A stretch of 64,000 nt of DNA from an archaeon (GCA_020057295.1 JAGVGF010000002.1:88776-152775), one strand, 5' to 3'. Shown: positions 14,853 through 49,200, counted from the stretch's first letter. Notes: generated by a model from the letters alone, not told the origin. Program-made: numbers and translations.

Positions 14853-14871
14853 AACTTTTGTTCCTATCTAT

Positions 14872-14994: not shown

Positions 14995-15097
14995 ATAATT
15001 CTAATATTACATTAAATTCTAATCATACCTATTCCTATTTTTGTTCTTTAACAAACTATATAAATAATTATTTACTTCGTAATAGTAAGGTTAAATC

Positions 15098-15646: not shown

Positions 15647-15662
15647 GTAAAACTTTAGTTAT

Positions 15663-15833: not shown

Positions 15834-15856
15834 TTTATTTTGGGGTTGATTAAGAA

Positions 15857-16102: not shown

Positions 16103-16212
16103 ACAATCAATCCTCCATAATTTTTGATTGATTTATAGAATTAAATATTTTTAATAAGTCTATCTAGAAAAAATTCGTAAAATATACGTTAAGAATGAAA
16201 AATTTACGATAC

Positions 16213-17109: not shown

Positions 17110-17113
17110 TTTT

Positions 17114-18217: not shown

Positions 18218-19347
18218 TTTTTTATCTCTATGATTATTTCACTGTTCTTCTCGTCAATATCTTTAACAAATTTTTTTATGTCTGAACTGTTATCAATTTT
18301 TTGTTTTATTTCTTTCCAAGAATATTTTTTACGTGCTTCTTTTACTGTGTCAACTATTTGTTTTACTTCTTGATATTTTTCATATAATATTTCCCCTTTG
18401 GCCTGATTTTCCTCGTATGATTGCTGGCATTCTAATAAAATTTTGTTTTGGTCATCAATAACTGAAGCAATTTTTTCTATATTTTTATTGTGAACCGTAT
18501 TGTCCTTAAGTACTTTTATTTTAGAATAATTTTCTCTGATTGCTTCACTAAAAGAATCATAAGTCTTTTTATCTTTATTATCAAATGATTTTAATTCAAA
18601 TGGGAAAATATTCTCGTCTACAAAGTTAGCGTTTGTTTTGTTGTTGAAAAGTTTCTTGAAATTTTTATAAAGTATATCAAAATCTTTATCCGACAAATCT
18701 TTTACTTTGATATTTTTGTCAACCTTACTATTTAGACAAATTTCCTCAGCAAATGTTCCTCCTAATGAAAGTACTATTGCTAATGTTTTAACTAATGATT
18801 CTTTGTTGGAATTTTTTACTCGATCGAAAAATTCTTCGAGTGATAATTCAGCTACATTAAATTGTGCCTTAGGATAGATATATATTTCATCTTTTTTGAG
18901 TTCTCTATCTTTCCAATGTTGTGTTTCAAGTAAGTTTAATATCTTGTATTTCTCGTCGCAAAATATTATGTTTCCCTTGCTAAATAGTTCTATTATTAAA
19001 TAATATTTTATCAGTTTATCTTCAACTTTTTTTTCTAGAATTAATTCTATGATTCTTTCGAATCCGATTTGTGATATTCCTTTTAATCTTGAACCTTCTA
19101 AATATTTTCTTAACATCATACATAAACCTGTAGGAGTATCCGCTGTATCTTTACCTTCATCAAGAAATATTATGCTCGGTAATATTGTTCTTAGAAATTT
19201 TTTGCCTGTACCACTAATATGAAATCCTATAACTAATTCTCTAGACGAATTCTTAGAATGGAATATTCTATCTACTTTAGAATCCTTCAATATCTGTAAT
19301 TCATTAATCAGATAATACAATTCCAGTGATGATATTTCGTTTTTCAT
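18214..19347 (-). CDS. NFACT-N domain protein (Rqc2/NEMF/FbpA relative), lacking the NFACT-R domain
   Basis: The first 120 residues match the NFACT-N fold of Rqc2-type ribosome quality-control factors: SSLELYYLINELQILKDSKV, then VDRIFHSKNSSRELVIGFH, PTGLCMMLRKYLEGSRLKGI and GFERIIELILE. A helical middle follows, ending in a coiled-coil-like segment (about 280-350). The protein stops at 377 aa, whereas full archaeal homologues are about 600-700 aa with a C-terminal NFACT-R (DUF814) domain. I see no such domain here, nor a separate gene for it in the window. These factors bind 50S subunits carrying stalled peptidyl-tRNA; NFACT-R is the part that contacts tRNA/RNA. The neighbour upstream is a Fap7-like ribosome-maturation gene, which suits a ribosome role. 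Confidence 0.8.
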   Translation of the reverse strand: MKNEISSLELYYLINELQILKDSKVDRIFHSKNSSRELVIGFHISGTGKKFLRTILPSIIFLDEGKDTADTPTGLCMMLRKYLEGSRLKGISQIGFERIIELILEKKVEDKLIKYYLIIELFSKGNIIFCDEKYKILNLLETQHWKDRELKKDEIYIYPKAQFNVAELSLEEFFDRVKNSNKESLVKTLAIVLSLGGTFAEEICLNSKVDKNIKVKDLSDKDFDILYKNFKKLFNNKTNANFVDENIFPFELKSFDNKDKKTYDSFSEAIRENYSKIKVLKDNTVHNKNIEKIASVIDDQNKILLECQQSYEENQAKGEILYEKYQEVKQIVDTVKEARKKYSWKEIKQKIDNSSDIKKFVKDIDEKNSEIIIEIKK

Positions 19348-23623: not shown

Positions 23624-23670
23624 ATTTTCACCCAATCCTTTCCACGTCAATTATCTTAAAATGTGTTAGA

Positions 23671-31171: not shown

Positions 31172-31330
31172 ATGAGTGAGAAAATAGAAACCGTTAACAT
31201 CCGTTTATCCCCTGAATTAATTAAGATTATAGATTCCTTAATTGCACAAGGACTATATAGTTCTCGAAGTGAATTTATTCGTGATATATGTAGGAATTAT
31301 GTTCTAGAAGAGAGGTATAAGAATGAGTAA
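31172..31330 (+). CDS. Ribbon-helix-helix (CopG-type) regulator, 52 aa
   Basis: The small frame MSEKIETVNIRLSPELIKII continues with DSLIAQGLYSSRSEFIRDIC and ends EERYKNE. It is a complete ribbon-helix-helix fold: one beta strand (TVNIRLS), helix A (PELIKIIDSLIAQG) and helix B (SRSEFIRDICRNYVLEE). Such proteins bind DNA as dimers through the strand. The stop (31328-31330) overlaps the start of the next RHH gene, so they are co-translated and may heterodimerise. They head the large rightward surface-protein gene series and are candidates for its control. Confidence 0.85.
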   Translation: MSEKIETVNIRLSPELIKIIDSLIAQGLYSSRSEFIRDICRNYVLEERYKNE

Positions 31331-31652
31331 GACTCTCTCCAAAACTCGTAAGGACACAATTGTTTCTGTACGTCTGCCTAAAAGTTTAGTCGAAGAACTA
31401 AAAGATATTCAGCAAATAAATCATTTCATGGATTTAAGCGATGAGATAAGGTTTGTTGTTCGAAGATATTGTTTAAGCTTCCTAAATAGTCAGGATCAAA
31501 ATTTAACACAAGCAAAACCTCCTATAGAATTACTTGCAGAACAAAAACGTAAAGAAAAATTAATTGACGATCTTTCAAAAATTATTGAAAACTTAAAGGG
31601 AAACAAACAAACTATACCCGCTAATCAAAATCAAAACAATTCAAATGAATAA
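31323..31652 (+). CDS. Ribbon-helix-helix regulator with C-terminal helical extension, 109 aa
   Basis: Residues about 12-52 (DTIVSVRLPKSLVEELKDIQ, then MDLSDEIRFVVRRYCLSF) form a second ribbon-helix-helix domain. The DLSDEIRFVVRRY helix fits the usual S(D/E)xIRxxVRxY pattern of CopG proteins. A hydrophilic tail follows with a helix (ELLAEQKRKEKLIDDLSKII) and an Asn/Gln-rich end. It overlaps the upstream RHH gene by 8 nt and the downstream 1058-aa surface-protein gene by 8 nt, so three genes are translationally chained and the regulator is co-expressed with the membrane protein. Confidence 0.85.
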   Translation: MSKTLSKTRKDTIVSVRLPKSLVEELKDIQQINHFMDLSDEIRFVVRRYCLSFLNSQDQNLTQAKPPIELLAEQKRKEKLIDDLSKIIENLKGNKQTIPANQNQNNSNE

Positions 31653-34600
31653 AAAAACAATCATCGGAATAGGAATATTCGTTATTTTAGTTACACTACT
31701 ATTAACATTCGGATTAACTAAAACAGTAAATGCACAATCAATAATAACAAACAACAGCAATACAGCATTAAATAGCATAACATATCAATTAGATATTGCT
31801 GAGTTAAATCTTTCAAACATCAACAATATGCAGTTCGATTCAAACACTAATACAACCACCATAACTAATATTAGTAATATAATAAATTATGAATGTAGTT
31901 TAGGAATAAATAATTATACTTATCTAAATGGAGGATCAACAACAACGTTAAACGCTTTAATAAATATAATGCAATCGTTAAACATTACATTAACAGATAA
32001 TTATTATGCTTTGGCATTAAATTGTACATATAATATAACTTCATTTAACACAACCACATATATTGTTTTATATTATAATGAAACGAGCAATGATACATAC
32101 AACATTACTAATATCTCATCATATAATGTTTCATCACAAACATTCATTCCTACAATAAAAAATATTTTAGTAGATACAAGCAATCCTATGATTTTATTGT
32201 ATGCTCCAATAAATAGTAGCATATATACAAATAATTCCAACACCACTGTTACACTAAATTTCACGATTAGTGATTTATCACAAACAAACTGTACGTTGTC
32301 TTTGAACAATAATACCGATAATTTACAATCTAATATTACTAGTATTCAATATATTTTGCCTTTAGGAAATTACACATATAATCTATCTTGTATAGATGCG
32401 TTAAATAATTCAAACCTCAACAGTTCAAACTTTAAGGTATTAAGTAATGTGACACCTGTAGAAGATGTATTCTTAAACATTCAATTAACAAAACCCTCAT
32501 TTGGTTTAGGTGAGATTGGACAGTATATTATTAATGCAAATAATAATTCCAATGTTACAATAACCATTTGTCCTGTGGCTTCTGGATGGGTGCAATGTTA
32601 TGTTACTCCTGTATTTGTAAATTATACTTATCCGCTAACACAAGCATTACCTTATACTAATAAAACTGGAAAGTATATGATTCAAGCCGTAATGAATTAC
32701 AAAAATTATACTCTAAGCACCAATACAACATACGATACAGCAAATACAATTACTGCTACTATAACTGCATCAAACATTACTGTTGGTGTTGGTAGTATAA
32801 TAACATTCAATGCCGTAGCAAGTGGAGGAATTGGAACTTACTCTTACAAATGGACAATGCATGATAATACAAGATTTGATGGAACGTCCGCATATAAGAA
32901 TTACACTTCATCAGGCACTTACAAAGTGAACTTGAATGTTAATGATAGTCAGGGAAATCAATACAATACATCAATAGATGTAGTAATAAAAAATTATTAT
33001 ACACTAACCGTTGTGGTTACAGATAAAGACACAGGTTCAAGAATTACTGATTCAAAAGTAGAAGTGAATAATGATATAAGACAAACAGATAGTAATGGTA
33101 TAGCAACATTTAGACTATTAGACAATTCATATGATATATATGTTTCAAAAAACAATTACGGAGGATATGTTAATAGTGTAGGATTGAGTGCTGATCGAAC
33201 AGTATATATGAATATGTCATTCCAGGATGTTGTACCTCCAAGAATTACTTTATTAACTGATAATGATTTCGTATTCTCTCAAGATAATGTTAAATTAAAG
33301 TTTAAGGCTGATGATGCTACAAATGTTGCTTGTTCACTATACACAGCATCAATGAACGATAGTTGGTATACTCTAAAAGATTCTGGAGATAATTTACTTG
33401 CAAACACTGAATACACATTTGAGCTTACAAATTTATCATATGGAGGCTACAAGTGGCGTGTAGAATGTTTTGATACAGAAAAGAATAAAGGTGTTAGTGA
33501 AGAGAGAAAGTTTGTGATATCAGATAGTAATACAGCTCTAGTCTTACAATATACTAACAGCAATTCTGATGCCATAAATACTGCATTAGATAATCTGAAT
33601 AAGTTATCTGGTGAAGAATCAGAAGTTGCTGATATATTAACTGTACGTGAAGATTTAAAAGATTTGCTTGAAAGAATCAACAGAATGGACAAAGATATTC
33701 ATGATCTAGCTTTCAGAAGAGATTTGGATGAAAAAGGAAAACAGGACGTTCAACAAAACCTTACCCAAACCTTAGAATATATGAAATATAATACTCCAAT
33801 AAATATACAAATCAGTGATTCTAAAACTTTTGTAAAATATATCAAGGATATTGATTTAAACATATTGCTTGAAGAGTATATAAGCATAAAGAATATGAAT
33901 GTTAACAAAAAAGCATTCTTGGAATCAACTAAGAGTGTTCAATCTAAAGCAGTAATTTCTACACGTGTAAGAAGTGTGGTATTACATTATCTTGATGGTA
34001 AAACTAAAGAAATAACTTTAGTCACAAAAACTATTAAACCATCAACTTCAGATGATGAATTATTGTTTGAAAATTCTAAAACTATAACTTTTGTAGAAGT
34101 CGTTCCTAAAAGTATTGCATCATCTATGAAACAATTGAACATGTTAAATAAAGAGTACACGGTCCTCAAAGATGATCCTGTTATAGAATTTGCCCCAAAT
34201 ATTAAAACTATAAATTATTATATTGATAAAAAGGTTGATGCTCAAGATTTCCAAAAAGTTGATACTGTAATAATTGATAAAAATATTAATGCTTTAAGAT
34301 CTCCTACAGGATTGGCAATACTTGGTGTTGATAATATTTCTGATATTCCTATAGATGGTCAAACTATAATGATAGTACTAATTTTAGTGTTGTTAATGTT
34401 CTATTTGGTTTTACATTTCGAATTAATAGATAAATTACGTAGTATAGGATTTGGATCAAAAAAGAAAATCACGTATGTTAAAGTTTTAATTAACGATGCT
34501 CTCGATTATTTGGAGGCTGAAGATTATGAGAAAGCAGCATTCGTATATAGAGAGATAAAATTATCTTATGAAAGTTCAAATAGTTTTGTTAGAAAAAAGG

Positions 34601-34821
34601 TATATACTGAATCTTATGAATTATGTAATAAATTAGATCTAAAATATACTGAATATTTACTAGAACATATAGAATCTTATATTAGACAGGAGAATAAAAC
34701 TGCTGCAATATTAGAATTTGATAAGTTAGAAAAAACTTACAATAGATTAGATGACTCTTATAAGGCTAGAATTAGTGATAAATTCAAAAATGCCTTAGAA
34801 AAAATAAAAACAGTACTATAG
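31645..34821 (+). CDS. Large membrane-anchored surface protein with PKD-like and Ig-like domains, 1058 aa
   Basis: The N-terminus is a signal or anchor helix (MNKKTIIGIGIFVILVTLLL). An Asn/Thr/Ser-rich region full of N-glycosylation sequons follows, then a PKD-like domain (about 385-445, GGIGTYSYKWTMHDN, SGTYKVNLNVND) and a carboxypeptidase-regulatory-like domain (about 450-525, VTDKDTGSRITDSKVEV, TDSNGIATFRLLDNSYDIYV). After that come an Ig-like domain (about 530-625), a helical segment (about 640-730) and further beta-rich sequence. A C-terminal membrane helix (about 905-928, TIMIVLILVLLMFYLVLHF) is followed by a 125-aa helical cytoplasmic tail with two TPR-like units (LEAEDYEKAAFVYREIKLSY). 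The extracellular receptor-like body joined to an inside helical tail suggests interaction with cytoplasmic parts of the next gene's system. I know no named homologue. Confidence 0.75.
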   Translation: MNKKTIIGIGIFVILVTLLLTFGLTKTVNAQSIITNNSNTALNSITYQLDIAELNLSNINNMQFDSNTNTTTITNISNIINYECSLGINNYTYLNGGSTTTLNALINIMQSLNITLTDNYYALALNCTYNITSFNTTTYIVLYYNETSNDTYNITNISSYNVSSQTFIPTIKNILVDTSNPMILLYAPINSSIYTNNSNTTVTLNFTISDLSQTNCTLSLNNNTDNLQSNITSIQYILPLGNYTYNLSCIDALNNSNLNSSNFKVLSNVTPVEDVFLNIQLTKPSFGLGEIGQYIINANNNSNVTITICPVASGWVQCYVTPVFVNYTYPLTQALPYTNKTGKYMIQAVMNYKNYTLSTNTTYDTANTITATITASNITVGVGSIITFNAVASGGIGTYSYKWTMHDNTRFDGTSAYKNYTSSGTYKVNLNVNDSQGNQYNTSIDVVIKNYYTLTVVVTDKDTGSRITDSKVEVNNDIRQTDSNGIATFRLLDNSYDIYVSKNNYGGYVNSVGLSADRTVYMNMSFQDVVPPRITLLTDNDFVFSQDNVKLKFKADDATNVACSLYTASMNDSWYTLKDSGDNLLANTEYTFELTNLSYGGYKWRVECFDTEKNKGVSEERKFVISDSNTALVLQYTNSNSDAINTALDNLNKLSGEESEVADILTVREDLKDLLERINRMDKDIHDLAFRRDLDEKGKQDVQQNLTQTLEYMKYNTPINIQISDSKTFVKYIKDIDLNILLEEYISIKNMNVNKKAFLESTKSVQSKAVISTRVRSVVLHYLDGKTKEITLVTKTIKPSTSDDELLFENSKTITFVEVVPKSIASSMKQLNMLNKEYTVLKDDPVIEFAPNIKTINYYIDKKVDAQDFQKVDTVIIDKNINALRSPTGLAILGVDNISDIPIDGQTIMIVLILVLLMFYLVLHFELIDKLRSIGFGSKKKITYVKVLINDALDYLEAEDYEKAAFVYREIKLSYESSNSFVRKKVYTESYELCNKLDLKYTEYLLEHIESYIRQENKTAAILEFDKLEKTYNRLDDSYKARISDKFKNALEKIKTVL

Positions 34822-34856: not shown

Positions 34857-37800
34857 ATGAATCGAAAAATTGATGATTTAATAGAGAAGCGTAAGGACAA
34901 AAAGAATTTATTAGCTATTGCTCTAATATTTTTTATAGTTTTAGGTTCAATATTTGGATTGATATTGTTGTCAACATTTATTGGCTACGTTTTTGAAAAT
35001 TATATCGCTGGACAGGCAGGTTATGTATATAATGTTGTTCTGGAATATCATGAATGTGCTACACTATGGTCTGGAGTTTATGGAGCGGCTGTAATGGTGT
35101 TGGGATATAATAATCAAGATGATGTAATCGTATCCTCATGTGGGATGTATGACCCGAATTTCCTGTTTAAATGTTTGCAACCAAATGCTGAACATGTATT
35201 GATGGCATCATTAACTCCTCCTGATGCTATAGATTTTAACACTTTACAACCAGCTACTGCTTTAGATGTAGATAATTATTTAGGTGTTGATGCACTAAAT
35301 ATGATGTCTGGCAGCAAAACATTTTTACAAACAGTATCTTACACCATTGATAGTACACAATATAATGTTCCTGGAACGTATACTTATAACAGTAGTAAAA
35401 ATCCTTCATTTGATTTAGGTATATTAAAGGATGGTAATGGTTCTCTTATATTTATTACTCATATAAATGCAAATTTTAGTAGAGGATTCAATAATAAATT
35501 ATATAATTATCAGATGATACTTCCTGTACGTAATAATACTAATCCTGATTATTATTTTTTTACAGATCCAAGTTATGTTTGTCCAGCTGGAGAAGGTACT
35601 AATCCTAACTCTGGATATGTTATTGGTAATGTTACTAGTAATACTGGGGAAAGATTATCAGGAGTAATAGTTGATATCGCTGGTAAAACTACAGCAACAG
35701 ATATCAATGGATTTTATAATCTTACAGCATATGGCGGGAATTATTATATCTATGGTATAAAGACAGGATATCAAGCATATGTCAGCAATATCACTGTATT
35801 ATCTGGCAACCTTACTGTTCATGATTTTGTTATGATTCCTGCAACTATCCCTAATCCTAATACTGGTCCTGGTGTTGGCCCTGGTGTTGGTCAAGGTCCT
35901 GGTATTGGTCCAGGCCAAGATGTTGGTCCGGGTGAAGCTCCAAGAGTTCCAATTGTTGAACAGCCAAAAAAAATTGAAGGTATAGACTATATTATATCTA
36001 TATCAAAAATTGATAGAAAACTAATTATAGGAAATTTCCTACAAGAAATTATAGCATTTTATAGTTATAAGAAAAACACTGCAAGTTTACAGTTTAGTAT
36101 AGAAGATGATAATAGTACTAATAGTACTGATTTCATGTTATCCAAACTTATAAAATTAGATAAACCATCAATGGCAGTATTCCCAAATACAAATGATCAA
36201 TTAACATTAACAGTTTTCGGGGATGGAATTCCTGGAGTATATAATGGATCATTAGTTATTGATGGAGATTTAAAAGAAAAGATACCTATACGAATAGAAT
36301 TATTAGATAAAGAAAGATTGCCTGTGCAAGCATTATTAATAACTTTAGATTTAGATAAACGTAGCATATTCTCTAGTGATAAATTAAAATTTAAGACAGA
36401 TTTACATAATTTATTGTCAGATCAATCTTATCCTGTGTCTTTACAATTTACGATTCAGGATAGTAAAGGAAAAACTGTATGGGCTGATTCTGCTAATGTT
36501 TATGTTCAAACATCATTTTCATTACTAAAATCTGCACAACTTCCAGATAATATTCCTACAGGCGATTATGTGTTAAGAGTTACGGCTAATTATTTAGGAT
36601 TATCTGGTGGTTCAAGTACAGTATTTAGTGTGGTATTGCCATTTTACGAAGTAATATTCTGGGGATTAAAACTATGGATATGGGCTGCAATAATATTAGC
36701 ATTACTAACCATTGGACTTGCATATTTCTTAATTAGAAGATATATCCAAAGCAAAAAGAGATATGCATTCAAGCTTGAAATGTCAGAACTACCGAAACCT
36801 GGACCAAGATCTGCATGGGTTGGTAAAGTTGCAGAGACAGAACATAAGACATACTTCGATTTAGAACAATTTAAAGTACACACTATTGTTGCAGGAGCAA
36901 CTGGTGGTGGTAAATCTGTAGCTGCACAAGTAATTGTTGAAGAAGCACTTTTAAAGAATGTTGCAGTCATAGTGTTCGATCCAACAGCGCAATGGTCTGG
37001 AATGTTAAGAAAATGTAATGATAAATTTATGTTGAGTTTATATCCTAATTTTGGAATGAAGCCATCAATGGCCAGAGCATTTAACGGTAATGTTAAACAA
37101 ATAACTAATGCGCTTGAATTAATTGATATTAAAAAATATATTAAGCCTGGAGAAATTCAAATATTAGCATGTAATAAATTAGATCCTAAAGATATTGATA
37201 TATTTGTTGCCAACAGTATTAGAGAAGTATTCCACGCAAATTTTGGTGAAGCACCAGAACTAAGATTATTATTAGTTTACGATGAAGTACACAGATTATT
37301 ACCTAAATTCGGAGGATCTGGAGAAGGATTCTTACAAATAGAAAGAGGATGCAGAGAATTCAGAAAATGGGGTATTGGAATATTAATGATTTCACAAGTA
37401 TTAGCAGACTTCGTTGGACAAATTAAAGCAAACATAAACACAGAAATACAGATGAGAACTAGAGATGAAGGAGATTTAGGAAGGATTAAAGAAAAATATG
37501 GTGTAGAAGTATTACAAGGCTTAGTTAAAGCTAGTGTAGGTTCTGGAATGGTAGAAAATCCTACATATAATAGGGGTAGACCTTATTTCGTAGCATTCAG
37601 ACCATTATTACACAATACACAAAGATTACCAGATGAAGAATTGGAAAAATACAATAAATGGAATGAGATAATTGCAGATATGGGATATCAAATAGAACAA
37701 TTAGAAGACTTAAAACAAGATGTATTCGATCTAAAATTACAGTTAAAACTTTCCTTAGATAAGGTTAAATCTGGAAATTTCAACATGGTAGAAATATATT

Positions 37801-38750
37801 TACAAGAAGTAACTCCTAGATTAATTAAACTTTGGGACAAATTAGGAAAGAAACCTAAGAAGAGAGAAGTAAAAACTGTAGACTTAAATGCATTAAAAGA
37901 AGAAATGCGTAAGGGAGAGGAAGAACGTAAGAAGGCTGCAGCACAGGAAAAGAAAGATCATCCAGAAGGCGAAGCTGCAAAAGCTGAAGAGAAAAAAGTC
38001 TTAAAGTATGATTATGTTGTTGATATTAAAGATAATTTAAATTTCAGTAATGGTGTTGCAATAGCAAGTTTACAAGAATTATCTGATGTAATGCCAAATA
38101 TTACTGGGCCAACACTAAAACATCATGTTGGAAAGGACAAGAACGAAATTGCAGATTGGGTTAGAGATAAATTTGGTGATGTTGAACTTGGAGAGAAATT
38201 ACGTGTTTGTAAAACTACAGAAGAATTTGTCAAAGTAATAACAGAAGATAAATCTAAAAATAATAAACCATTTACACCAACAAAATCAGGAGCTGCACCA
38301 GTAGCTGTTCCACCAACTCCATCTGTTACAGCGTCTCCTATAATTTCATCAGTTCCTATAACTCCACAAATTAATCCTGATACAGGAGAAGGTGAAAGTG
38401 TAGCATGGAACGATATAAAGCCAAAACTTAAATCTTTGAATAGTGACGAACAGATAGCATTATTAGAAAAATCTGTAAAAAAATATCCTCAAGATATCAA
38501 TATAAAATTCCCATTAGCATTATTACATCATAAAACAAAAGATTATGACAAAGCAGAAAAAATGTATAAGGAAATACTAGAATTATATCCGAAAAATACT
38601 AAAGCATTATTCTACCTTGGTGGATTAATGAAATCTAAAAAGAGTTATGATGATGCACTAAAATATTTTAATATATATCTTGAATTAAAAAAGAATGATT
38701 CAAAAGTTAAAGACTTAATAAAACAGATTGAAGAAAAAAATAAGAAATAG
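34857..38750 (+). CDS. Membrane-bound HerA/FtsK-family ATPase with extracellular region, KNDFANW-type module and TPRs, 1297 aa
   Basis: Order of parts: membrane helix (about 20-47); extracellular domain starting AGQAGYVYNVVLEYHECATL; a carboxypeptidase-regulatory-like domain (about 253-327); a Gly/Pro linker (about 334-365); Ig-like sequence; membrane helix (about 598-622). Then the ATPase follows with Walker A GATGGGKS (about 680-687), Walker B LLLVYDE (Asp809, Glu810) and the HerA-type sensor region ISQVLADF...NTEIQMRTRDEGDL. A charged coil comes next, one module with HHVGKDKNEIADWVRDKFG (about 1060-1130) and C-terminal TPRs (about 1183-1290). HerA/FtsK hexamers move DNA or protein. Two membrane spans and an outer domain are not typical of HerA; conjugation or secretion ATPases and FtsK are the nearest analogies. 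A protein-secretion or surface-assembly motor is my inference. Confidence 0.82.
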   Translation: MNRKIDDLIEKRKDKKNLLAIALIFFIVLGSIFGLILLSTFIGYVFENYIAGQAGYVYNVVLEYHECATLWSGVYGAAVMVLGYNNQDDVIVSSCGMYDPNFLFKCLQPNAEHVLMASLTPPDAIDFNTLQPATALDVDNYLGVDALNMMSGSKTFLQTVSYTIDSTQYNVPGTYTYNSSKNPSFDLGILKDGNGSLIFITHINANFSRGFNNKLYNYQMILPVRNNTNPDYYFFTDPSYVCPAGEGTNPNSGYVIGNVTSNTGERLSGVIVDIAGKTTATDINGFYNLTAYGGNYYIYGIKTGYQAYVSNITVLSGNLTVHDFVMIPATIPNPNTGPGVGPGVGQGPGIGPGQDVGPGEAPRVPIVEQPKKIEGIDYIISISKIDRKLIIGNFLQEIIAFYSYKKNTASLQFSIEDDNSTNSTDFMLSKLIKLDKPSMAVFPNTNDQLTLTVFGDGIPGVYNGSLVIDGDLKEKIPIRIELLDKERLPVQALLITLDLDKRSIFSSDKLKFKTDLHNLLSDQSYPVSLQFTIQDSKGKTVWADSANVYVQTSFSLLKSAQLPDNIPTGDYVLRVTANYLGLSGGSSTVFSVVLPFYEVIFWGLKLWIWAAIILALLTIGLAYFLIRRYIQSKKRYAFKLEMSELPKPGPRSAWVGKVAETEHKTYFDLEQFKVHTIVAGATGGGKSVAAQVIVEEALLKNVAVIVFDPTAQWSGMLRKCNDKFMLSLYPNFGMKPSMARAFNGNVKQITNALELIDIKKYIKPGEIQILACNKLDPKDIDIFVANSIREVFHANFGEAPELRLLLVYDEVHRLLPKFGGSGEGFLQIERGCREFRKWGIGILMISQVLADFVGQIKANINTEIQMRTRDEGDLGRIKEKYGVEVLQGLVKASVGSGMVENPTYNRGRPYFVAFRPLLHNTQRLPDEELEKYNKWNEIIADMGYQIEQLEDLKQDVFDLKLQLKLSLDKVKSGNFNMVEIYLQEVTPRLIKLWDKLGKKPKKREVKTVDLNALKEEMRKGEEERKKAAAQEKKDHPEGEAAKAEEKKVLKYDYVVDIKDNLNFSNGVAIASLQELSDVMPNITGPTLKHHVGKDKNEIADWVRDKFGDVELGEKLRVCKTTEEFVKVITEDKSKNNKPFTPTKSGAAPVAVPPTPSVTASPIISSVPITPQINPDTGEGESVAWNDIKPKLKSLNSDEQIALLEKSVKKYPQDINIKFPLALLHHKTKDYDKAEKMYKEILELYPKNTKALFYLGGLMKSKKSYDDALKYFNIYLELKKNDSKVKDLIKQIEEKNKK

Positions 38751-38812: not shown

Positions 38813-40039
38813 ATGAGTAAACTTTCAGAAATCACAAAACCAGAGAATAAATTCTATACTGTAGATGGTCAATCATTAGTAATATTACAAGATTTAGTGA
38901 ATTATTTATTGATTTGTGATGAAGATTTATATGCATATCATGTTAATGATACTAAGAATGATTTTGCAAATTGGGTTAGAGAAGTATTGGTTCATCCAGA
39001 TTTATCAGAATCAATGATGAAATGCAAAAATGTTAAAGAATGTAGAAATATTTTATTAGAATTCTTAAAAATATTAGATAATAACTCTTCATCCATAAGT
39101 AAAGAGAAGAATTTTTACACTTATGACGGTATTAGATTAAGGAATCTACACGAATTATATTATTATATTAATAATTCCGATGAGCACGCGTATAATATGC
39201 ATGTTAATTCAGAAAAGAATGATTTTGCTAATTGGATTAATGATGTTTTATTATTTTCTAAATTAGCCGTACAATTAAGAGAGATAAAAGATCGTGAAGA
39301 ATTTCTACATACTTTAAAACAATTTTTAAAAGATAATTTAAGTTATAATGTGGATAATCATAAAGATGTTGCTGACTCTGAAAATAGAAATGTTGAAGCA
39401 ACTGTTGAAAAAGACATAGAAAAAAAGATAGAGTCTAAAAAATTATTTATCGAAAAACCTAATATCGAAGAGTCTAAACTTCAAGAGCCTGTTGCGGAAT
39501 CTAAAGTTTCAGTCGTAAAATCTGACTCGGTAAGTATCTCTAATCCTATAGAAAAAGTTGTAAAAATTCAAAAAGTGGAAAATGCTATAAATCTAAATAC
39601 TAAACTACAACCTATTCCAGAAGAACCAGAGCCAGAAAATAAAGATAATCAAACAATAGATATAAGTAAGTTTAGACAATTTACAGATGAAGAACTCGAA
39701 AAGTTCGTAAATTTTTCAAGACATGAAACTGTTGATACTGTTAACATAAAGGTCGAATATTTAAAATCCGTGCTTCAAGAATTGAAAAATATGATTAAAG
39801 ATTTGAGAAGATCAGAAAAAGATCCATTGGTTGCAGATTTGCTTGCTAGGGCTATAGCTCCGAAAATAGATTATTACGCATTAACTAAAAGCGTGGATGA
39901 TTACAATTATATTATTACTTCAATGAAAGAGATACAGCATGAGATTGAAGAATGTGACGTTCAAAAACATTATAATATTGCTGAAGAAATATTGAAAGAC
40001 TTGAAACTTCAAGGAATAGCTATGAAGAAAGCATTATAA
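38813..40039 (+). CDS. Soluble protein with two KNDFANW-type (DUF5752-like) modules and a helical C-terminus, 408 aa
   Basis: Two copies of one module of about 80 aa occupy residues about 14-90 and 101-180. Each begins FYTxDG and contains HVNxxKNDFANWIxxVL followed by a helical ending. The same module is present in the C-terminal part of the upstream HerA-like ATPase and in the protein at 41232. Residues about 190-285 are a charged, low-complexity linker. The rest is helical (LEKFVNFSRHETVDTVNIKV, EYLKSVLQELKNMIKDLRRS). There is no signal peptide, so it is cytoplasmic. I believe this corresponds to the Pfam family of unknown function DUF5752, but could not check. By shared module and synteny it is likely a partner or adaptor of the ATPase. 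Confidence 0.75.
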   Translation: MSKLSEITKPENKFYTVDGQSLVILQDLVNYLLICDEDLYAYHVNDTKNDFANWVREVLVHPDLSESMMKCKNVKECRNILLEFLKILDNNSSSISKEKNFYTYDGIRLRNLHELYYYINNSDEHAYNMHVNSEKNDFANWINDVLLFSKLAVQLREIKDREEFLHTLKQFLKDNLSYNVDNHKDVADSENRNVEATVEKDIEKKIESKKLFIEKPNIEESKLQEPVAESKVSVVKSDSVSISNPIEKVVKIQKVENAINLNTKLQPIPEEPEPENKDNQTIDISKFRQFTDEELEKFVNFSRHETVDTVNIKVEYLKSVLQELKNMIKDLRRSEKDPLVADLLARAIAPKIDYYALTKSVDDYNYIITSMKEIQHEIEECDVQKHYNIAEEILKDLKLQGIAMKKAL

Positions 40040-40095: not shown

Positions 40096-41151
40096 ATGTT
40101 TTGGTTTAAGAAAAAGGAAAAAGAAATAACTCCGCAAGAAGAATCTGCTGATAGTGAGGATGATAGTTCTGGAGAACAGAAACCTGCTATTAGTGGCAAT
40201 ATAGAAGCTGAGTTAACTAAGATAAAATCCTCTCTTGAAGCACTTAATGAAGTTAGAAAAGCTAATTCTGATCAATTTACACGTATTAGTGAACAGATAG
40301 GAGAATTACGTGGCGCTTTAATGGATACTAACAAAGCTGTTGGTACTATAGAAGTAGCATCCACAAAAGCTATTGATATGGTAAATTCTGTTCAACCTGA
40401 TAAATTAATGATTGAAGTTAGAAAAACAGACAGTAAAGTTGAAGCGTTAAGAGCTAATATTGAAGCTAATGAAACAATAATGAAAGATATAATGAGAGAA
40501 ATGAAAGAGATGCGTGCACAAATGGGTTTCTATAAAGGTGTTGATCAAGTTGTTAAGATGAATAATGAAATTAAACAAGAATTAATTGACATTAAAAAGA
40601 CTGAAGGTTTAGTTGGTAAACATGCTGATCGTGTAGAAACTATATTTGTAGAGGTTGAGAAGAAATTTTATGATTTCGAGAAATTTAATGAAGCTGTAAA
40701 AGAATTAGATAGATCTTTTAAGAAAATTTCTTCAGATTTTGATAAGATAAGGGTGGGTGTTGATGAGAAAGCCGATAAAAAAGAATTTGTTAAAATGGTT
40801 GATAAATTTGGTGACTTCGAAAAACATACCTCAAACATACTGAAGTTACTTGATCAAAAATCTAAAAACACACTCGTAGAATTGAATGCATCATTTGATG
40901 AATTAAAGAAACAACTTGAAGGTAATTATGATAAAAAATTAGATGTTAAAGGTCTTAAGATTGATGATGCTCCTGGAGCCTCTCTAGGCACTGGAACTCC
41001 TGTAGACCCTGCATTATCAACTTTAAGTACTGAAAGTACTAAGAAAAGTGAGTCTGTAGCTTCAACTGACAAAGCGTCTGCTGTTAATAATTCCTTAAAT
41101 GGTGCTGTTGATAAAGTTAAAGGTATGTTTAGTGGATTGAAAAAATCCTGA
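40096..41151 (+). CDS. Cytoplasmic coiled-coil protein, 351 aa
   Basis: The start is secured by an excellent SD (GAGGTGA, 3 nt before ATG), with a TATA-like AGTATATAAAC at about 40051-40061. After a short MFWFKKKEKE head and an acidic segment, residues about 30-285 are long heptad-type helices (EAELTKIKSSLEALNEVRKA, ELRGALMDTNKAVGTIEVAS, VKELDRSFKKISSDFDKI). The protein ends in a Ser/Thr/Ala-rich tail and a short amphipathic helix (VDKVKGMFSGLKKS). There are no membrane segments. It lies between two genes encoding KNDFANW-type modules, so a scaffold for the ATPase complex is plausible. The partial gene at the window end begins similarly (MFELFKK). I recognise no named family. Confidence 0.7.
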   Translation: MFWFKKKEKEITPQEESADSEDDSSGEQKPAISGNIEAELTKIKSSLEALNEVRKANSDQFTRISEQIGELRGALMDTNKAVGTIEVASTKAIDMVNSVQPDKLMIEVRKTDSKVEALRANIEANETIMKDIMREMKEMRAQMGFYKGVDQVVKMNNEIKQELIDIKKTEGLVGKHADRVETIFVEVEKKFYDFEKFNEAVKELDRSFKKISSDFDKIRVGVDEKADKKEFVKMVDKFGDFEKHTSNILKLLDQKSKNTLVELNASFDELKKQLEGNYDKKLDVKGLKIDDAPGASLGTGTPVDPALSTLSTESTKKSESVASTDKASAVNNSLNGAVDKVKGMFSGLKKS

Positions 41152-41231: not shown

Positions 41232-41750
41232 ATGATTGATGATAATCCAAAACTGAAATTTTTGTCAAAAGTTCCTCCTCAGAATAATTTTGGTTTTTCT
41301 AATGGAAAAGTAGCTGAGGATATTCAAGGATTATATGATATCATAAAGGGTTCTGATGACAATAATTTTTATGAACACGTTAATGATACTAAGAATGATT
41401 TCGCCAACTGGATAAGATCTTGTGTGTTGCATATAGAATTAGCTGATAAACTTTACAATATTAAGAAAAAAGAAGATTTTTTGCAAGCATTAGGTCAGGA
41501 GATTGAAACAATAAAGAATTATTCCATTGCTCCAGTAGTTCCAACGGCATCTGTTAATCTAGCTCCTCCTATCTCTAGTCCTATCATACAGTCTGTTCCC
41601 GCGGCTTCTGCTGTGCCTGCAAGTTCTCCTGCTCCTTCGAACCAAACTACAAATCCTGTTGCTATATTAGTTGAGGAAATATTTGAATTTGAGGAGATAT
41701 TCAAATCTTTAATAGATGAACTTGAAAAAGAAATATTTTCTGAACAGTAA
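41232..41750 (+). CDS. Single KNDFANW-type (DUF5752-like) module protein, 172 aa
   Basis: Residues about 20-100 hold one copy of the module, with FGFSNGKVAEDIQGLYDIIK, the motif HVNDTKNDFANWIRSCVLHI and ELADKLYNIKKKEDFLQALG. The motif block is nearly identical to copy 1 of the protein at 38813. A Pro/Ala/Ser-rich linker (about 105-145) and a short acidic helix (VEEIFEFEEIFKSLIDELEK) complete it. SD AAGGTG lies 4 nt before the ATG. It is cytoplasmic by absence of a signal. It is the third gene of the series with this module, so its role is tied to the same ATPase system. Confidence 0.75.
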   Translation: MIDDNPKLKFLSKVPPQNNFGFSNGKVAEDIQGLYDIIKGSDDNNFYEHVNDTKNDFANWIRSCVLHIELADKLYNIKKKEDFLQALGQEIETIKNYSIAPVVPTASVNLAPPISSPIIQSVPAASAVPASSPAPSNQTTNPVAILVEEIFEFEEIFKSLIDELEKEIFSEQ

Positions 41751-41792
41751 TTTCCAAAATATTTAAATGTACGAGTAGTTATTTTGTTCTTA

Positions 41793-42173
41793 ATGAAAAT
41801 ATTTAACACCCTTTTACGTAATTTTAATCGTAGACAAAAATTTTTTGTTGCGTTAACACTTTCAATATTAATTATTGGTTTATTTTTATGGTTGTTTATT
41901 GCTAATAGTAAATCTGCCTCAAATTTTGATGTAGAATCGGATGTTGATACAATTGCGAGAGCAAGTATTGCTAATGATGAATATTTTGTAAAGTATGGGG
42001 GATATGATTTGAAATTAGATAGTGTGGAAAGATCTTGTTTGAATTGTGCTACGTTAACTTATACATATAAGATAAATACTACTTTGCTAATAAAGTCAAT
42101 TAAAGGATTTAAAGTTATAATTCAAATACAAAACAACACATTAGTCGATTATAGAAATGTAAGATTAACATAA
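41793..42173 (+). CDS. Small single-span membrane protein with extracytoplasmic domain, 126 aa
   Basis: I start at ATG 41793, which has a TATA-like ATATTTAAATG (about 41759-41769) at leaderless distance, and not at the in-frame TTG at 41784. A basic N-terminus (NTLLRNFNRRQKFF) precedes one membrane helix (about 18-36, FVALTLSILIIGLFLWLFI). The remaining 90 residues look beta-rich and extracytoplasmic, with a Cys pair (RSCLNCATLTYTY) that could form a disulfide. The single N-terminal helix plus small beta domain resembles minor pilin or pseudopilin-like or adaptor proteins in layout, but no class III signal site is evident. Family unknown. It probably belongs to the ATPase-centred system. Confidence 0.65.
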   Translation: MKIFNTLLRNFNRRQKFFVALTLSILIIGLFLWLFIANSKSASNFDVESDVDTIARASIANDEYFVKYGGYDLKLDSVERSCLNCATLTYTYKINTTLLIKSIKGFKVIIQIQNNTLVDYRNVRLT

Positions 42174-42509: not shown

Positions 42510-43172
42510 ATGATTGGTAATAAGCTTGAACAATCGATAATTTCAGTATTTCAGTATAATCTTAGTAAAACCTTTAGTATAAATGAGATTTCTAAACAGC
42601 TAAGAAAGTCTTACCCTACAATTAATCATAAATCAAACTTTTTTCTAAAAGAAGGAATATTAAAAAAGATTGATATCGGAAGATCATACCAATGTTTTCT
42701 AAATTTATCAAACGATAAGACAAAGATATTAATATCGACAAATGAAGTGAATAATAAAGAAGTATTTCTTGAAAAAAATAGGGATTTTAGCATAACTTAT
42801 GAGAAAATATCAAGCATTTGCGAATCTCAAAGTTACAAAAAGAAAATATCTTTTGTTTTACTTTACGGTATGGAGATAATTTTTGTACTAGACAGTTTAG
42901 ACCAGGAAATTGTGACTGAAATTCAGAGTTCTGTCCCTGCTTCTACAAAATATAAATTCTTATTCTTAACAGAAGAATTATTCAAAGTAGAATTTCTGAA
43001 CAATAATGCTTTACAAAAAAATCATGTTTTACTGTTTAATATACCTTCATATGTACAATTACTTGAAAGTATGGTTGATAAATTATTGACTCGCGGATTT
43101 ATTAATTTAACAAAGAATGATGATATTAAAAAAAATATCAATAAAAAAGAGTTATACAAAAACAAAACATAA
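42510..43172 (+). CDS. Winged-helix DNA-binding regulator with nucleotidyltransferase-like C-terminal region, 220 aa
   Basis: Residues 1-65 form a winged helix-turn-helix (SIISVFQYNLSKTFSINEIS, KQLRKSYPTINHKSNFFLKE, GILKKIDIGRSYQCFLN). Residues about 105-190 (KKISFVLLYGMEIIFVLDSL, KYKFLFLTEELFKVEFLNNN, HVLLFNIPSYVQLLESM) follow the pattern of archaeal regulators in which an HTH is fused to a degenerate nucleotidyltransferase-like domain; the usual GSxARG catalytic motif is absent, so no catalysis is expected. The ATG is preceded by GGTAGGATTGC and by an 8-codon TTG-started frame. It is 40 nt upstream of the giant surface-protein gene and probably co-transcribed, so it likely controls that operon and itself through the palindrome at 42448. 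Confidence 0.7.
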   Translation: MIGNKLEQSIISVFQYNLSKTFSINEISKQLRKSYPTINHKSNFFLKEGILKKIDIGRSYQCFLNLSNDKTKILISTNEVNNKEVFLEKNRDFSITYEKISSICESQSYKKKISFVLLYGMEIIFVLDSLDQEIVTEIQSSVPASTKYKFLFLTEELFKVEFLNNNALQKNHVLLFNIPSYVQLLESMVDKLLTRGFINLTKNDDIKKNINKKELYKNKT

Positions 43173-43212
43173 TCGTGCTGTATATTGTTTTGAAGATTTA
43201 GATGATAAAAAT

Positions 43213-46200
43213 ATGAATAACAATAAAAATTTTGGAAACAGGATGTTGATGAGTGTGTTGTTCCTATTAGTTATACTTTTATCTTTTTCTGTACATTCCG
43301 TTTATGCTGTCAAGCTTCAATCAGAATTAAAAGACACTAATATAATTTTATCTTTAGATGACTCAAAATTTAATGGAGTAGACCTTGGTGAAAATTATGA
43401 GCTTATGATGTCTTTAGGAAATCAAAATTATAAATATTTTGGCGGAATGATATTTCCTATAATTATAAATACAAATGGAGAAGGATTATATTCTTTTAAA
43501 TTATTAAATAAGTCTAATCAAGAAATATTATCGGAAATAAGTGTATCAAAAACATTTGACTGTGATAAACTTTCATTAAATGTTGCTCCTTCAACAAAAT
43601 CTTCAAATAATGATGTCGGAACATACTCTGTTGGAGAAGAAATAAGTATACACCTATTCGAAGGACAAATAGCATTGAGTAATATTCCACAATTTATTAT
43701 TATTTCAATAATTGCACAAAATAATTCTGATAAAGTTTATAGACTTTCTGGAGATATAACATCTAAATTTATACCTTCAGAGTCCGGAACGTATACTGTG
43801 TCTTTGTACTGTAACAGTGGTGCAATATATTCTAAGGATATTGTCGTTAAATCATCTGATGCCTCGAGTGATGTTAGTATGGGTAATGTTAGTATTATCG
43901 AACCTTACACGCAAAATAATGACTTAGTTCATAGTAATATAGAAAACAACGGTGCAAATTATTCCATTAAAAGAATAACTGTGAAGAATTCTCGTAACGA
44001 AGTTTTCATTGGAGATGTCAAAGCATACAACATAAGGAGTGAAGCGCCGGTAGGAATACGTCAAAAAATATTGTCTCTTTTATCATCGAATTCTGGTAAG
44101 GAAATAATAGGTAAAATCGAGATGGATTTAAATGGTGTTAGCGGATTAGAAAATACGAAACTATCTTTGAATGATGTTGACAGCACAAGTAATACGGTGC
44201 TTATAGAGTCAATAAGTAAAAAAAATATTGAAGAAAAAAATACTATAAATTTAGAAGGAAGTATAGAAGGATCTATTGTTGATGCTTATGCTCTGGACTT
44301 GTCAGCATTAAGTTTTACAAATGGAACTTTAACAAAAACAGCAAAAGGCAGAGTATTGTGGAAATGTAAAGATTGGAATTTTGCACAACAAACATGTTTT
44401 GGTAAATGGATTGAAGTAATGAATATTAGACCTGGAGAAGATTATTCTTTTGAGGTTTCTCCTAATGATCCAGGATTTATTGAGACAGGATTGGCAACAA
44501 TAAATACTGACAAATCAATATATCAAATTGGAGAGAGTGCTAAAATAAGTGCAGTTGTTCTGGATACTCAAGGATATTTAGTTAGTAATGCTACAGTAAA
44601 CATTATGATAACAACACCAGGAAACACAGTATACTTCTTTGATAATGTTGCTGAATCAAAAAGAGGAATATATGAAATAATATTCAATCACAATGATATT
44701 ATAGGAAATTATACTATGCAAGTATCAGCATATAAGAATGAAACAAATCTTGGAATGACGCAGTATGTAAATTATTCAATGATTTCAGATTTCTCTGTTA
44801 TGGAATATTATGATTTTGATATAATAAGAAATATTCCTATAACTACAGATCCATTCAGAAAACCATTATATGCAAAAATATTGATTCATCCATTAAATGA
44901 AAATATTACTAATTATAATTTCACAGAAGTAATACCGAGTGATTTATTGGTAATTGATGCACCAGGAGCGACAATTTCAAATGCTGGAAATGAAACGCAT
45001 TTAACATGGACTGGATTAAATGGAAATGTTACATTAAATTATACTACTCAGCCTCCATTAATAACTCCTAACTTATTAATATTAGGAAAAGCATTTATAG
45101 AATATGTAATTAATTCTGCTACATATATTTTTGTAGAATTTAGAAATTGGTTTATAGCTGTAGATCCAACTGTTACTAGAGATCAAGGACTTGTAGTATA
45201 TGCAGATAGAACGGATGACGGATTTATAAAATATAGAAATTGGACAGGATCGACATTACAATCTGAAGTTAATTCAGGTGTTGATTTTGGTAATCGAATA
45301 GCCTGGTTAAAATTTAGATGTCTTGTTAATCGCGAACAATGTATACTTGTTGGTTCAGATACTGGTGCCGATATTAATTTTAATGTATTTTATACAAATA
45401 ATTGGACATGGTCAACAAATACTCAATTAGATGGTTCTAGTGAGACTTCGCAAAGTAATATAGATCTTGATTGTGAATCTCTTTCAGGACAATGTATTGT
45501 TGTTTATGAAGATAGTACCAATAATGATGCAGTGTTTGTATATAGAATTTGGAATGGAACAGATATTAGTGGAATTAATACTGTAACAATTACTGGTGGA
45601 GAGAATAACGAAATAGATTGGATAAATTTGTATCCTCAAAAAGGAACAAATAATATCGGAATTGCAATCCAAAATGATGGTGGAGGAGTAAATACTGATA
45701 CTCCTGCAATATATTCTGCAATTTGGAATGGGACTAATTTTACTAATTGGAGAACATTAACTGCTAACAGTCCTGCTGATGGTACGTCAAGAACATTTTA
45801 TAGACATTATGATTGTGCTTGGGAAGGTGGCACAGGATATTTTGGATGTTTCTATGCTAATGATACATTAAATGCAATTTTATTTGATAGATTTAATGGA
45901 ACAAACTGGAATTATATGGGGCGAATATTTAATACGAGTGGTGAACCTCGTGAAATTTCTGCGTGCGGTCAAGAAGGATTAAGTTCTTTTAATCATAGTT
46001 ACATTGGTTTAATGTTTTGTGATTCAGCAAATGATTTAGACGGCACAATTTGGAATGGAACAAGTTTACTTAAAACAACTCACGCTGCAAGTCCTGCTCA
46101 AAATACAAATGCTGAGTGTGGTGACTCAAATAAAGGTGCAACTGAGTACGCTCAAAATTTTAAATGTACTTGGGAAGATGATGGGTCTAAAGCATTATTT

Positions 46201-49200
46201 GTTTGGGTAAATAATGGTGTAACTTATCTAACCTCCGGATCATATACGAAAGCTACGAGTACATTTTCAAATCCTAATTGGACTTCTGGAACGCAAATTG
46301 TTGCAAATGGTGCAGGAGCACTTAGATCTGCATATCTTGTTTCCAATCCTGCATCAAATAGTGTATTTTTAACATATACTGATGGTGCAAGAGATGGTGG
46401 ATGTTCATTATGGACTGGCACGACTTGGGATGGTTCAGGATGTAATAGTGCAACAGTATTTGAAACAACCGGTCCAAATGTTGGAGTAGCATGGTTAGTT
46501 TTTGATTGGTTTAGAAATCCTCCTCCTCAACCAGAAATAACAATAATAACTCCAACAAATTCAATTGGTTATATAAATTATACTGGAATAACAAATCCTA
46601 GTTCAACAAGTATTGCGTGGGATAATGGAACTACTGCTCTTCCTCCGCCTGGCGCTTCTGCTCCAATTACTGGAGTAGAATTCCCTTCTGCTGAATATGT
46701 AAAGATAACTTCAAGTAATGACATAAGACATATAACAACTGTTACAGGAACTGCTGGAAGATATGCTTATCAAAGTTTTAATTTTACTGTTACTGAATCA
46801 ACAGTAAATATGCAATCAATAATTGTAACTCATGAAGGTTATGCCACTCAAACAACAAGTCTTACTGCAAGTCAATTTTATATTTATGGATATAATTGGA
46901 GTTCAGATTCGTATGTTTTATTAAAAACAGTATTTGCAAGTTCAGTTGATGTTACTAGTGAAGTAACTATTGATGCAGGATTTAATGATTTTGTTAGAAA
47001 TAGACAAATGTATGTTCTTGTTCAGGGAAGTTTTGCAATAGGTGTTGGAGCAAATGCTAGAGCTGATATAAACACAGACTATATGGGTTTAACAGTAGAA
47101 ACTATTCCAATGCTTTCACAAAATATTACTGTGAATGCTTCCGCAATTGACGATGATGGTATAAGTAAATGTGAATGGATTTTCTATAATTCTACAAATG
47201 GTAATCCAAATAGTTTAATAGGAATGATAAATACTTTTGGAGATTATTATTATAATTTTAGTTCTATATCAGGAGTTCCTGATGGATATTATAATTTAAC
47301 TGTATTTTGTAATGATACATTAAGCGCAAGAACAAATGAATCTGTATATGTTTATATAGATTCAACTCCTCCAGCAATAATATTATATAATCCTACAAAC
47401 AATTCTAATATCACTGTAAACTATGCATTGTTTTCTTGGAATGCGACAGATATATTATATGCTAATTTAGTTTGTAATTTAACAATTGATGGAACTGTCA
47501 GAGCGACAAATGTTGTATCTGCACATGCAGAAAATATTAGTAGAAATATTACAAGTATTACTGATGGAACACACTACTGGAACGTCACGTGTAGAGATGA
47601 CGCTGGAAATAGGAATATTTCTCAAACCTGGAGATTTGATTCTGATACTATAGGACCTGCTGTGACTCTTAATAGTCCAAGCGCCTCATCTTACACTAAT
47701 AAAAATCCTTTAGATTTGAATTTCACTGCAACAGATTCACATACGATTGTTAATTGTTCATTATATCTTGACGGATCATTAAATCAAACAATAACTTCTG
47801 TTACTAGCGGCATTATGACTAATTTTACATTTACAAATTTAAATCAGGGAGTTCACAATTGGAATGTTAGTTGTTATGATAGCTTTGGATTACGTGGAAA
47901 TTCAACAAGTAGAAATTTCACTTATGATACGATATTGCCTACTGTGTATTTAAATATTTCAACTGGATACATTTTCAATGGAACGATTCCAATATTAAAT
48001 TATACTGTAATTGATAATATTGATTCTAATCTAACATGTAATATTACTGTTAATAGTGTTATAGAACTTGCAAATATTGCATCAACAAATAATACTTTAA
48101 TATCAAGATCAGTTCCATTACTTGATGGATTTAAACAATGGAATGTTACATGTGTTGATGATGCAGGAAACGTTAACACTTCTGAAACAAGAATTTTTCA
48201 AGTCATAGGCGGTCCTCTTGTAACGCTTCAAACTCCTGTTAATGGAACGATAGGTAATGGAACAAATATAACTTTAAAATATTACGCTCAAGATGGGAAT
48301 GGAGTTGCAAATTGCTCGTTATATATTAATGATGTTCTAAATCAAACAAATACTAGCATTACAAGTGGAGCAAATAATACTTTTTTAATTTCAAGTCTTA
48401 ATGAAGGAAGATATAATTGGAGCGTAACATGTTACGATACTAATGGTTATCCGGGTTATTCTAGTACTTGGCAAATTATTTCAGACAGATCAAAACCTTC
48501 AATAAATTTAAGTGCTCCAATTTCAGGACAGGTATTAACTACTACGCCAACATATTTTAATTTCACACTCTTAGATTTTTATTCCACAAATGCTACGTGT
48601 AATTTGACTATTGATGGAATTGTAAATGCCGGTAATCAAAATTTTGTAGCATTAAATGGTTCTGTAACTACTAGATCTCAAACTGTAACAAATGGATTGC
48701 ATTATTGGAATGTTACATGTATAGATTTAGGATATAATTTTAACACTTCTTTAACGCGGAATTTTACTATAAATGTTACATTCCCTGTAAGTGTTACTGT
48801 AGTTGCTGACAAGACCCAATACCAAGAAGGAGAAATTGCTCAAATAAATATTACCACAAAAAATGAAACTTCAGGAAATATTGCTACAAATATAACTTTG
48901 GATTATATATACACCAATAATACTTATACTGATATTCCTTGGTGGAATACTTCTTGGAATTATAGAAAGTCCATTGTTTTGAATCAAACAAATAATACTT
49001 TAATCTCTAGTAAAGCAATACTTGTAAATGTTACAGTTCCATATGGCACAATTACTAATTGTCATGAACTTCGAGTAGTTTCTGATTCAGATTTAAGTTT
49101 TGTAGATTCTAATGTTATAACTGGTGATGATGTTACATTTTGCTACATTTATTTTATTGGAACAGTTACTGCAAATGCAGTTAATGAAAATAATTATCAC

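What the first reader, a model, noticed from the sequence alone, without database searches (positions are those of the whole stretch)
34857..38750. HerA-type ATPase fused to an extracellular receptor-like region and TPRs
Normal HerA is a soluble DNA translocase of about 500-600 aa. Here two membrane helices bracket roughly 550 residues of extracellular sequence (regulatory beta domain, Gly/Pro linker, Ig-like part) before the motor, and docking modules follow it. That layout suits signal-dependent or substrate-gated transport of protein across the membrane.
Basis: partly seen in the sequence, partly recalled or inferred. Interest (0 to 1): 0.7.

Follow-up and report, generated by a model that had tools for sequence, protein, structure and literature searches.

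The report
Compact SPEARE-type membrane HerA motor
A single protein of a tiny symbiont-type archaeon joins an outside sticky or sensing arm, two membrane helices and an inside ring-type ATP motor; it is the short form of the giant 'SPEARE' surface proteins thought to connect such archaea to their hosts, so it offers a handle of practical size on how that contact machine works.

Summary
Window 34857-38750 encodes 1297 aa: TM1, about 550 aa outside, TM2, an intact HerA-group ATPase, a DUF5752-like module and TPRs. It is no assembly fusion: the same layout recurs in dozens of genomes. The motor is not the repair HerA; the genome has separate HerA-like and NurA genes, and the family forms its own clade.

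It is a compact version of something already described. The same motor, at E about 1e-155, ends the published giant 'SPEARE' proteins of nanohaloarchaea; I recovered 9,409 aa (SVXNc_0300) and 8,880 aa (BNXNv_0298) exactly. The window's own genome also carries an 8,055-aa version.

New here: the compact form with its conserved operon (RHH, two-TM receptor, motor, DUF5752, coiled coil); a coiled-coil gene beside most variants, giants included; assignment of the motor to the HerA/CedD group rather than VirB4; and lineages in which the long receptor-bearing subunit has lost the Walker B glutamate while a short one keeps it, suggesting mixed rings.

Best reading: a contact-gated membrane translocase of DPANN archaea. 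Substrate (protein or DNA), direction and ring assembly are inferred, not shown. New variant of a known kind, interest 0.58.

The parts
34857..38750 (+). Compact SPEARE-type protein, 1297 aa: TM1 - ectodomain - TM2 - HerA-group ATPase - DUF5752-like - TPR
34908..34982 (+). TM1 (about aa 18-42), N terminus inside
   Evidence: hydropathy; K/R-rich before it
35025..35591 (+). Conserved extracellular beta domain (about aa 57-245); part of it matches a secreted-type ~250-aa protein encoded elsewhere in the genome
   Evidence: alignment A5; model; 39% match to a 259-aa frame at C2:157060
35625..35834 (+). Carboxypeptidase-regulatory-like beta domain (aa 257-326); more copies in some relatives
   Evidence: E 9e-4, below Pfam cut-off
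35859..35972 (+). Gly/Pro-rich linker (about aa 335-372), predicted disordered
   Evidence: sequence; pLDDT under 50 at 331-375
35973..36641 (+). Two membrane-proximal Ig-like beta-sandwich domains (about aa 373-595)
   Evidence: NEW3 in the giant paralogue
36672..36755 (+). TM2 (aa 606-633 in the model), 70-79 aa before Walker A in most members
36819..37736 (+). HerA-group ATPase (about aa 655-960): Walker A GATGGGKS 680-687, Walker B VYDEVH 807-812, REFRKWG 833-839
37998..38378 (+). DUF5752-like module (about aa 1048-1174), also present in neighbouring genes
   Evidence: E 1.2e-10 to the 41232 ORF
38439..38735 (+). TPR repeats (about aa 1195-1293)
31323..31652 (+). RHH-like small protein (cluster c4), probable autoregulator
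   Evidence: cluster of 18 loci
31645..34821 (+). Two-TM receptor-like partner (c2, 1058 aa, PKD ectodomain, helical cytosolic tail)
   Evidence: upstream of 20 of 28 compact loci with enough sequence
38813..40039 (+). Cytosolic protein with two DUF5752 domains (c3)
40096..41151 (+). Coiled-coil protein (c1), partner beside most variants including the giants
41232..41750 (+). Second DUF5752 protein (c3)
41784..42173 (+). Small single-TM protein at the end of the operon (TTG start), no known domain
42510..43172 (+). Conserved protein c5, winged-helix-like by eye; precedes the giant surface gene
   Evidence: cluster of 9; no Pfam match
43117..55128 (+). 4003-aa secreted Ig-repeat protein (c7) with relatives beside other compact loci; possible client or fellow adhesin

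Best explanation
The protein is a compact member of the SPEARE-type family of DPANN archaea: a membrane-anchored motor of the HerA group. Two membrane helices per subunit hold a HerA-like ring on the inner face of the membrane; the ectodomain reaches outside (about 550 aa here, 7,000 to 9,000 aa in the giants) and binds or senses a surface, most likely a partner cell. Contact, passed through the two membrane-proximal Ig domains and TM2, gates the ring, which uses ATP to thread a polymer (effector protein or DNA) across the membrane. The c1 coiled coil, the DUF5752 proteins and the TPR tail form the cytosolic platform that loads substrate, and the two-TM c2 protein is a co-receptor. Shown: layout, intact catalytic motifs, family membership, conserved gene partners. 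Inferred: hexamer, gating, transport, substrate, direction, and the roles of the partners.
For: Same motor family as the giants of cultured nanohaloarchaea (exact 9,409 and 8,880 aa, E about 1e-155), which published work ties to host contact. Motor motifs intact in 63 of 70 readable motors, REFRKWG in all 70. Best PDB matches by sequence profile and by fold are hexameric HerA; the best NCBIfam model for the nanohaloarchaeal motors is CedD, a membrane-anchored HerA-clade ATPase essential for DNA import in Saccharolobus (PMC11868833). Conserved operon and c1 partner. Long subunits with dead Walker B occur with short intact partners, as expected of mixed rings.
Against: No experiment on this family's ATPase. 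No conserved multi-TM channel (CedA/VirB6-like) next to it, so the pore would have to be its own TM ring or an unlinked protein. No nuclease, relaxase or recognisable effector seen in the operon. The HAS barrel of HerA seems absent (TM2 closely precedes the motor), so HerA biochemistry may not carry over. The 20-sequence AF2 model is monomeric (pTM 0.58).
Confidence: 0.5

Rival explanations
1. DNA uptake motor: it works like CedB/CedD and pulls DNA from a contacted cell into the archaeon as nucleotide source or for repair.
For: Motor is HerA-group; CedD is the best NCBIfam match of SVXNc_0299 and of the SVXNc_0300 motor (45.5 and 41.5 bits); CedD has TM plus HerA-like ATPase and is needed for DNA import only.
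Against: Scores lie far below the CedD cut-off (600). No CedA/CedA1-like channel or pilin, and no nuclease, seen in the operon. NurA is encoded elsewhere.
Confidence: 0.25
2. Adhesin with a regulatory or mechanical ATPase: the ring remodels, retracts or signals through the surface arms, and nothing crosses the membrane.
For: Ectodomain length varies from about 250 aa to over 9,000 aa while the motor stays constant; cytosolic tails are docking modules (TPR, DUF5752, DUF835); no channel gene.
Against: The HerA/FtsK group is known for translocation, not for such a role (general knowledge); the motor motifs are conserved.
Confidence: 0.2
3. Dedicated exporter or assembly motor for the archaeon's own giant surface proteins.
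For: Giant secreted Ig-repeat genes lie just downstream in several compact loci (c7, c16).
Against: The two giant proteins of the window have N-terminal hydrophobic segments of Sec type; c7 relatives are in only 6 loci; giants with their own motor lack such neighbours in the sample.
Confidence: 0.1
4. Ordinary HerA of DNA repair, or an assembly fusion of two genes.
For: Pfam name DUF87/HerA only.
Against: Separate HerA-like gene (527 aa) and NurA in the same genome; own clade with support 100; the layout recurs in dozens of genomes.
Confidence: 0.02

Closest known systems
SPEARE / giant membrane-anchored proteins of nanohaloarchaea (Hamm et al. 2019, PMC6642349; Reva et al. 2023, PMC10266531)
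   Same: N-terminal signal or TM, ectodomain, TM, cytosolic ATPase; same motor family at about 1e-155; coiled-coil gene downstream
   Different: Ectodomain about 550 aa instead of several thousand; extra DUF5752 and TPR modules; operon with RHH, c2 and DUF5752. The cytosolic domain was called a restriction enzyme (2019) or VirB4/TraG (2023); here it ranks as HerA-group
CedB/CedD of Sulfolobales (PMC11868833, PMC9905601)
   Same: Membrane-anchored HerA-clade ATPase of archaea; CedD is the best NCBIfam match for the nanohaloarchaeal motors
   Different: Score far under cut-off; no large ectodomain described in CedD; no CedA/CedA1-like partner beside it here
HerA of the HerA-NurA pathway
   Same: Motor fold and motifs; top PDB matches
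   Different: Separate clade; two TM helices; no NurA linkage; motor preceded by TM2
VirB4 / VirD4 (TraC, TraD, TrwB) of type IV secretion
   Same: Same ATPase superfamily; VirD4 also has N-terminal TM helices (general knowledge)
   Different: Weaker profile matches (VirB4-like 4ag5 E 0.1, TrwB E 0.63); no PF03135 match in SVXNc_0299; no other T4SS genes seen in the operon

Membership tests
SPEARE-type giant ATPase proteins | Cytosolic C-terminal motor homologous to that of published SPEARE proteins | tested here: met
   A2 profile hits the 9,409-aa (SVXNc_0300), 8,880-aa (BNXNv_0298) and SG9-like ORFs (starts giving 8,553 and 3,315 aa) at 1e-154 to 1e-163; one clade
SPEARE-type giant ATPase proteins | Outside part between N-terminal hydrophobic segment and a TM, C terminus with motor inside | tested here: met
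   Two TM segments, 553 aa between them; but 670 aa inside exceed the outside part, unlike the giants
SPEARE-type giant ATPase proteins | Giant size, laminin-G and other adhesion domains (original definition) | tested here: not met
   1297 aa; no laminin-G match. Hence 'compact relative', not a SPEARE in the original sense
HerA (NurA-linked repair helicase) | Groups with canonical HerA; linked to NurA | tested here: not met
HerA-FtsK superfamily, HerA group | Walker A and B, conserved Arg motif, closest to HerA in sequence and fold | tested here: met
HerA-FtsK superfamily, HerA group | Hexameric ring | not testable with these tools
   no multimer prediction available
CedD/CedB DNA import ATPases | Over the curated cut-off of the CedD or CedB model | tested here: not met
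   28.4 bits (window) to 45.5 bits (SVXNc_0299) against 600
Type IV secretion system | VirB4 N-terminal domain PF03135 in the paired ATPase | tested here: not met
   No match at E up to 1 in SVXNc_0299 or BNXNv_0297
Type IV secretion system | Channel, pilin and relaxase genes nearby | tested here: inconclusive
   No conserved gene with 4 or more TM in the neighbourhoods; pilins, relaxases and unlinked genes were not searched for with models

The most novel reading that the evidence does not exclude
A self-contained contact machine in which one polypeptide supplies adhesin or receptor, membrane pore (ring of 12 TM helices) and HerA-type motor, in some lineages as a mixed ring of ATPase-dead receptor subunits and live short subunits, and which moves DNA or protein between a DPANN archaeon and its partner cell without any type IV secretion channel.
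Probability: 0.3. Interest if true: 0.87.

Novelty: new variant of a known kind. Interest (0 to 1): 0.58.

Why it matters
How DPANN archaea exchange material with their hosts is open. The leading candidate machine, the SPEARE giants, is too large to clone or solve whole. A 1.3-kaa version with the same motor, the same coiled-coil partner and a conserved operon makes ring formation, ATPase activity, substrate and gating directly testable. It also revises the reading of the motor (HerA/CedD group, not restriction enzyme and probably not VirB4), which keeps DNA open as a possible cargo.

Tried and rejected
Canonical HerA or assembly fusion: rejected. VirB4/T4SS membership: PF03135 not found, profile and fold ranks favour HerA. 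Restriction enzyme: 9 of 20 motors give ResIII matches, but DUF87 matches all 20. A 15,809-aa homologue (G028:C41) was dropped as a record length because 5,549 codons are N. Tree placement of FtsK, TraC, TraD and YjgR is unreliable (very long branches), so the HerA-group claim rests on profile and fold ranks. c1 has no convincing Pfam family. Ectodomain fold search gave only generic Ig-like matches with low TM-scores. Literature searches for giant genes in Woesearchaeota and for DUF5752 found nothing. A T4SS-like channel neighbour was sought and not found.

Full report
Observation. The ORF at 34857-38750 (+) is real and uninterrupted (1297 aa). Pfam finds DUF87 over its cut-off, a weak carboxypeptidase-regulatory domain and TPRs. 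Hydropathy gives two TM segments that bracket about 550 residues; charge flanks and sequon density agree with inside-outside-inside topology. A C-terminal module (about 1048-1174) matches the 41232 ORF (E 1e-10); the 38813 ORF carries DUF5752 above the cut-off and the 41232 ORF just below it, and in the relatives two of 20 motor tails match DUF5752.

It is not an artefact or a repair HerA. The ATPase with the TM2 region was aligned from 29 loci, and the compact ectodomain from nine records (TM1, beta domain, one or several carboxypeptidase-regulatory domains, linker, two Ig-like domains, TM2). TM2 lies 70-79 aa before Walker A in most members. The host genome (1.2 Mb) has another HerA-like gene of 527 aa, a 468-aa DUF87 gene, and NurA on another contig. 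In a tree of 63 motors the family is one clade (SH-aLRT 100) apart from the ~510-aa HerA set and the ~450-aa DUF87 set. The positions of the bacterial references in that tree are unsafe (long branches). By profile the best PDB matches are all HerA (4d2i 5e-14), then FtsK (2e-3), VirB4-like 4ag5 (0.1) and TrwB (0.6). By fold (AF2, pLDDT 83) Foldseek ranks HerA first, with FtsK and the coupling protein TcpA lower.

It is a compact form of a published family. The same genome has an 8,055-aa homologue (C4:13992-38159, no N) with TM at 11-29 and 7321-7339, beta-helix repeats and a NEW3 domain outside, and DUF835 inside. Relatives have open frames from about 620 aa to over 12,000 aa; the longest (15,809) contains N runs and should not be trusted, and the other very long frames beyond the published ones were not checked over their whole length. 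Hamm et al. 2019 (PMC6642349) described SPEARE proteins of 5,998, 8,553, 4,057, 3,315 and 655 aa, with a cytosolic part read as type III restriction enzyme. Reva et al. 2023 (PMC10266531) described SVXNc_0300 (9,409 aa) and BNXNv_0298 (8,880 aa), re-read that part as VirB4/TraG-like, and proposed effector secretion 'straws'. In the nanohaloarchaeal phylum 15 of 28 genomes carry the family; I recovered ORFs of exactly 9,409 and 8,880 aa, and SG9-like ORFs with starts giving 8,553 and 3,315 aa, all matching the window family at 1e-154 to 1e-163, each locus with a c1 coiled-coil gene downstream. The restriction-enzyme reading is explained: 9 of 20 motors give ResIII matches while DUF87 matches 20 of 20. 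The PF03135 claim for SVXNc_0299 is not reproduced; its best NCBIfam match is CedD, 45.5 bits, far below the cut-off. CedD is a membrane-anchored HerA-clade ATPase essential for DNA import (PMC11868833).

Distribution. 67 of 371 sampled genomes of the window's phylum, 15 of 28 nanohaloarchaeal, 5 of 146 in the phylum of a Micrarchaeota record, 1 of 148 in the phylum of a 'Euryarchaeota' record (could be transfer or misbinning). Named records are nearly all DPANN: Woesearchaeota, Nanoarchaeota, Nanohaloarchaea, Micrarchaeota, Diapherotrites.

Operon. Around compact genes the order RHH (c4) - two-TM receptor (c2) - motor - DUF5752 (c3) - coiled coil (c1) recurs. With enough flank, c1 follows 22 of 28 compact and 9 of 10 giant loci, and c2 precedes 20 of 28 compact loci; many c1 and c2 hits were used to build the profiles, so these are descriptive counts. 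c1 has no known family. No conserved multi-TM channel gene accompanies the motor, which argues against a classical T4SS.

Dead and live subunits. Of 70 readable motors in the neighbourhood set, 63 keep DE in Walker B; the seven exceptions (DG or DS) are all long receptor-bearing subunits of 1413-1702 aa that still have the Walker A lysine and REFRKWG. An eighth is G019's 1421-aa protein. In four loci (L110-L113) a short subunit with DE lies next to or near the dead one, and in two more genomes (G019, G395) elsewhere in the genome; for G303 a 783-aa second copy exists but its Walker B was not read, and the genome of L055 was not searched. The five dead ones in the tree fall in one clade (98), so this is probably one event kept since, not independent events. 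Separately, giant and short motors of one locus are each other's closest relatives in several lineages (L114, L123, L126, G407, G414), as expected of repeated local duplication or conversion. Both patterns suggest mixed rings; neither proves them. The window protein itself is of the intact kind.

Mechanism. Shown: topology signals, intact motor motifs, family, partners. Inferred: a hexamer at the membrane, gating by the ectodomain, and passage of protein or DNA. I give about 0.5 to a contact-gated translocase in general, 0.25 to the more specific DNA-import version and 0.2 to a non-transport adhesin role (the first two overlap in part).

Noticed in passing
G000:C4:13992-38159 (L009, L010): 8,055-aa homologue in the same genome, with DUF835 tail and its own downstream coiled-coil gene.
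   Followed up: yes
L110, L111, L112, L113, L054, L055, L132, L024: Receptor-bearing motors with Walker B DE changed to DG/DS; where a partner was read, a short motor keeps DE.
   Followed up: partly
G000:C2:154001-161253 (L012): Island of about six similar-looking ~250-aa secreted proteins; one matches the window protein's outer beta domain.
   Followed up: no
window about 31180-31329: A second short RHH-like frame just upstream of, and overlapping the start of, the c4 gene.
   Followed up: no
L059:3-2994 (also L030/L039, G003:C8): The compact gene is split into two overlapping frames, a frameshift or sequencing error in this genome.
   Followed up: no
window 55128-63581: 2817-aa second giant surface protein whose start codon overlaps the last base of the 4003-aa gene's stop codon.
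   Followed up: no
window 1-19000: Sugar and surface polysaccharide genes (epimerases, methyltransferase, flippase-like, glycosyltransferase), then a class II ribonucleotide reductase at 20663-23650.
   Followed up: partly
L061 / G392: 'Euryarchaeota' record with family members (5,850-aa frame), the only one of 148 genomes of its phylum sample; transfer or misbinning.
   Followed up: partly
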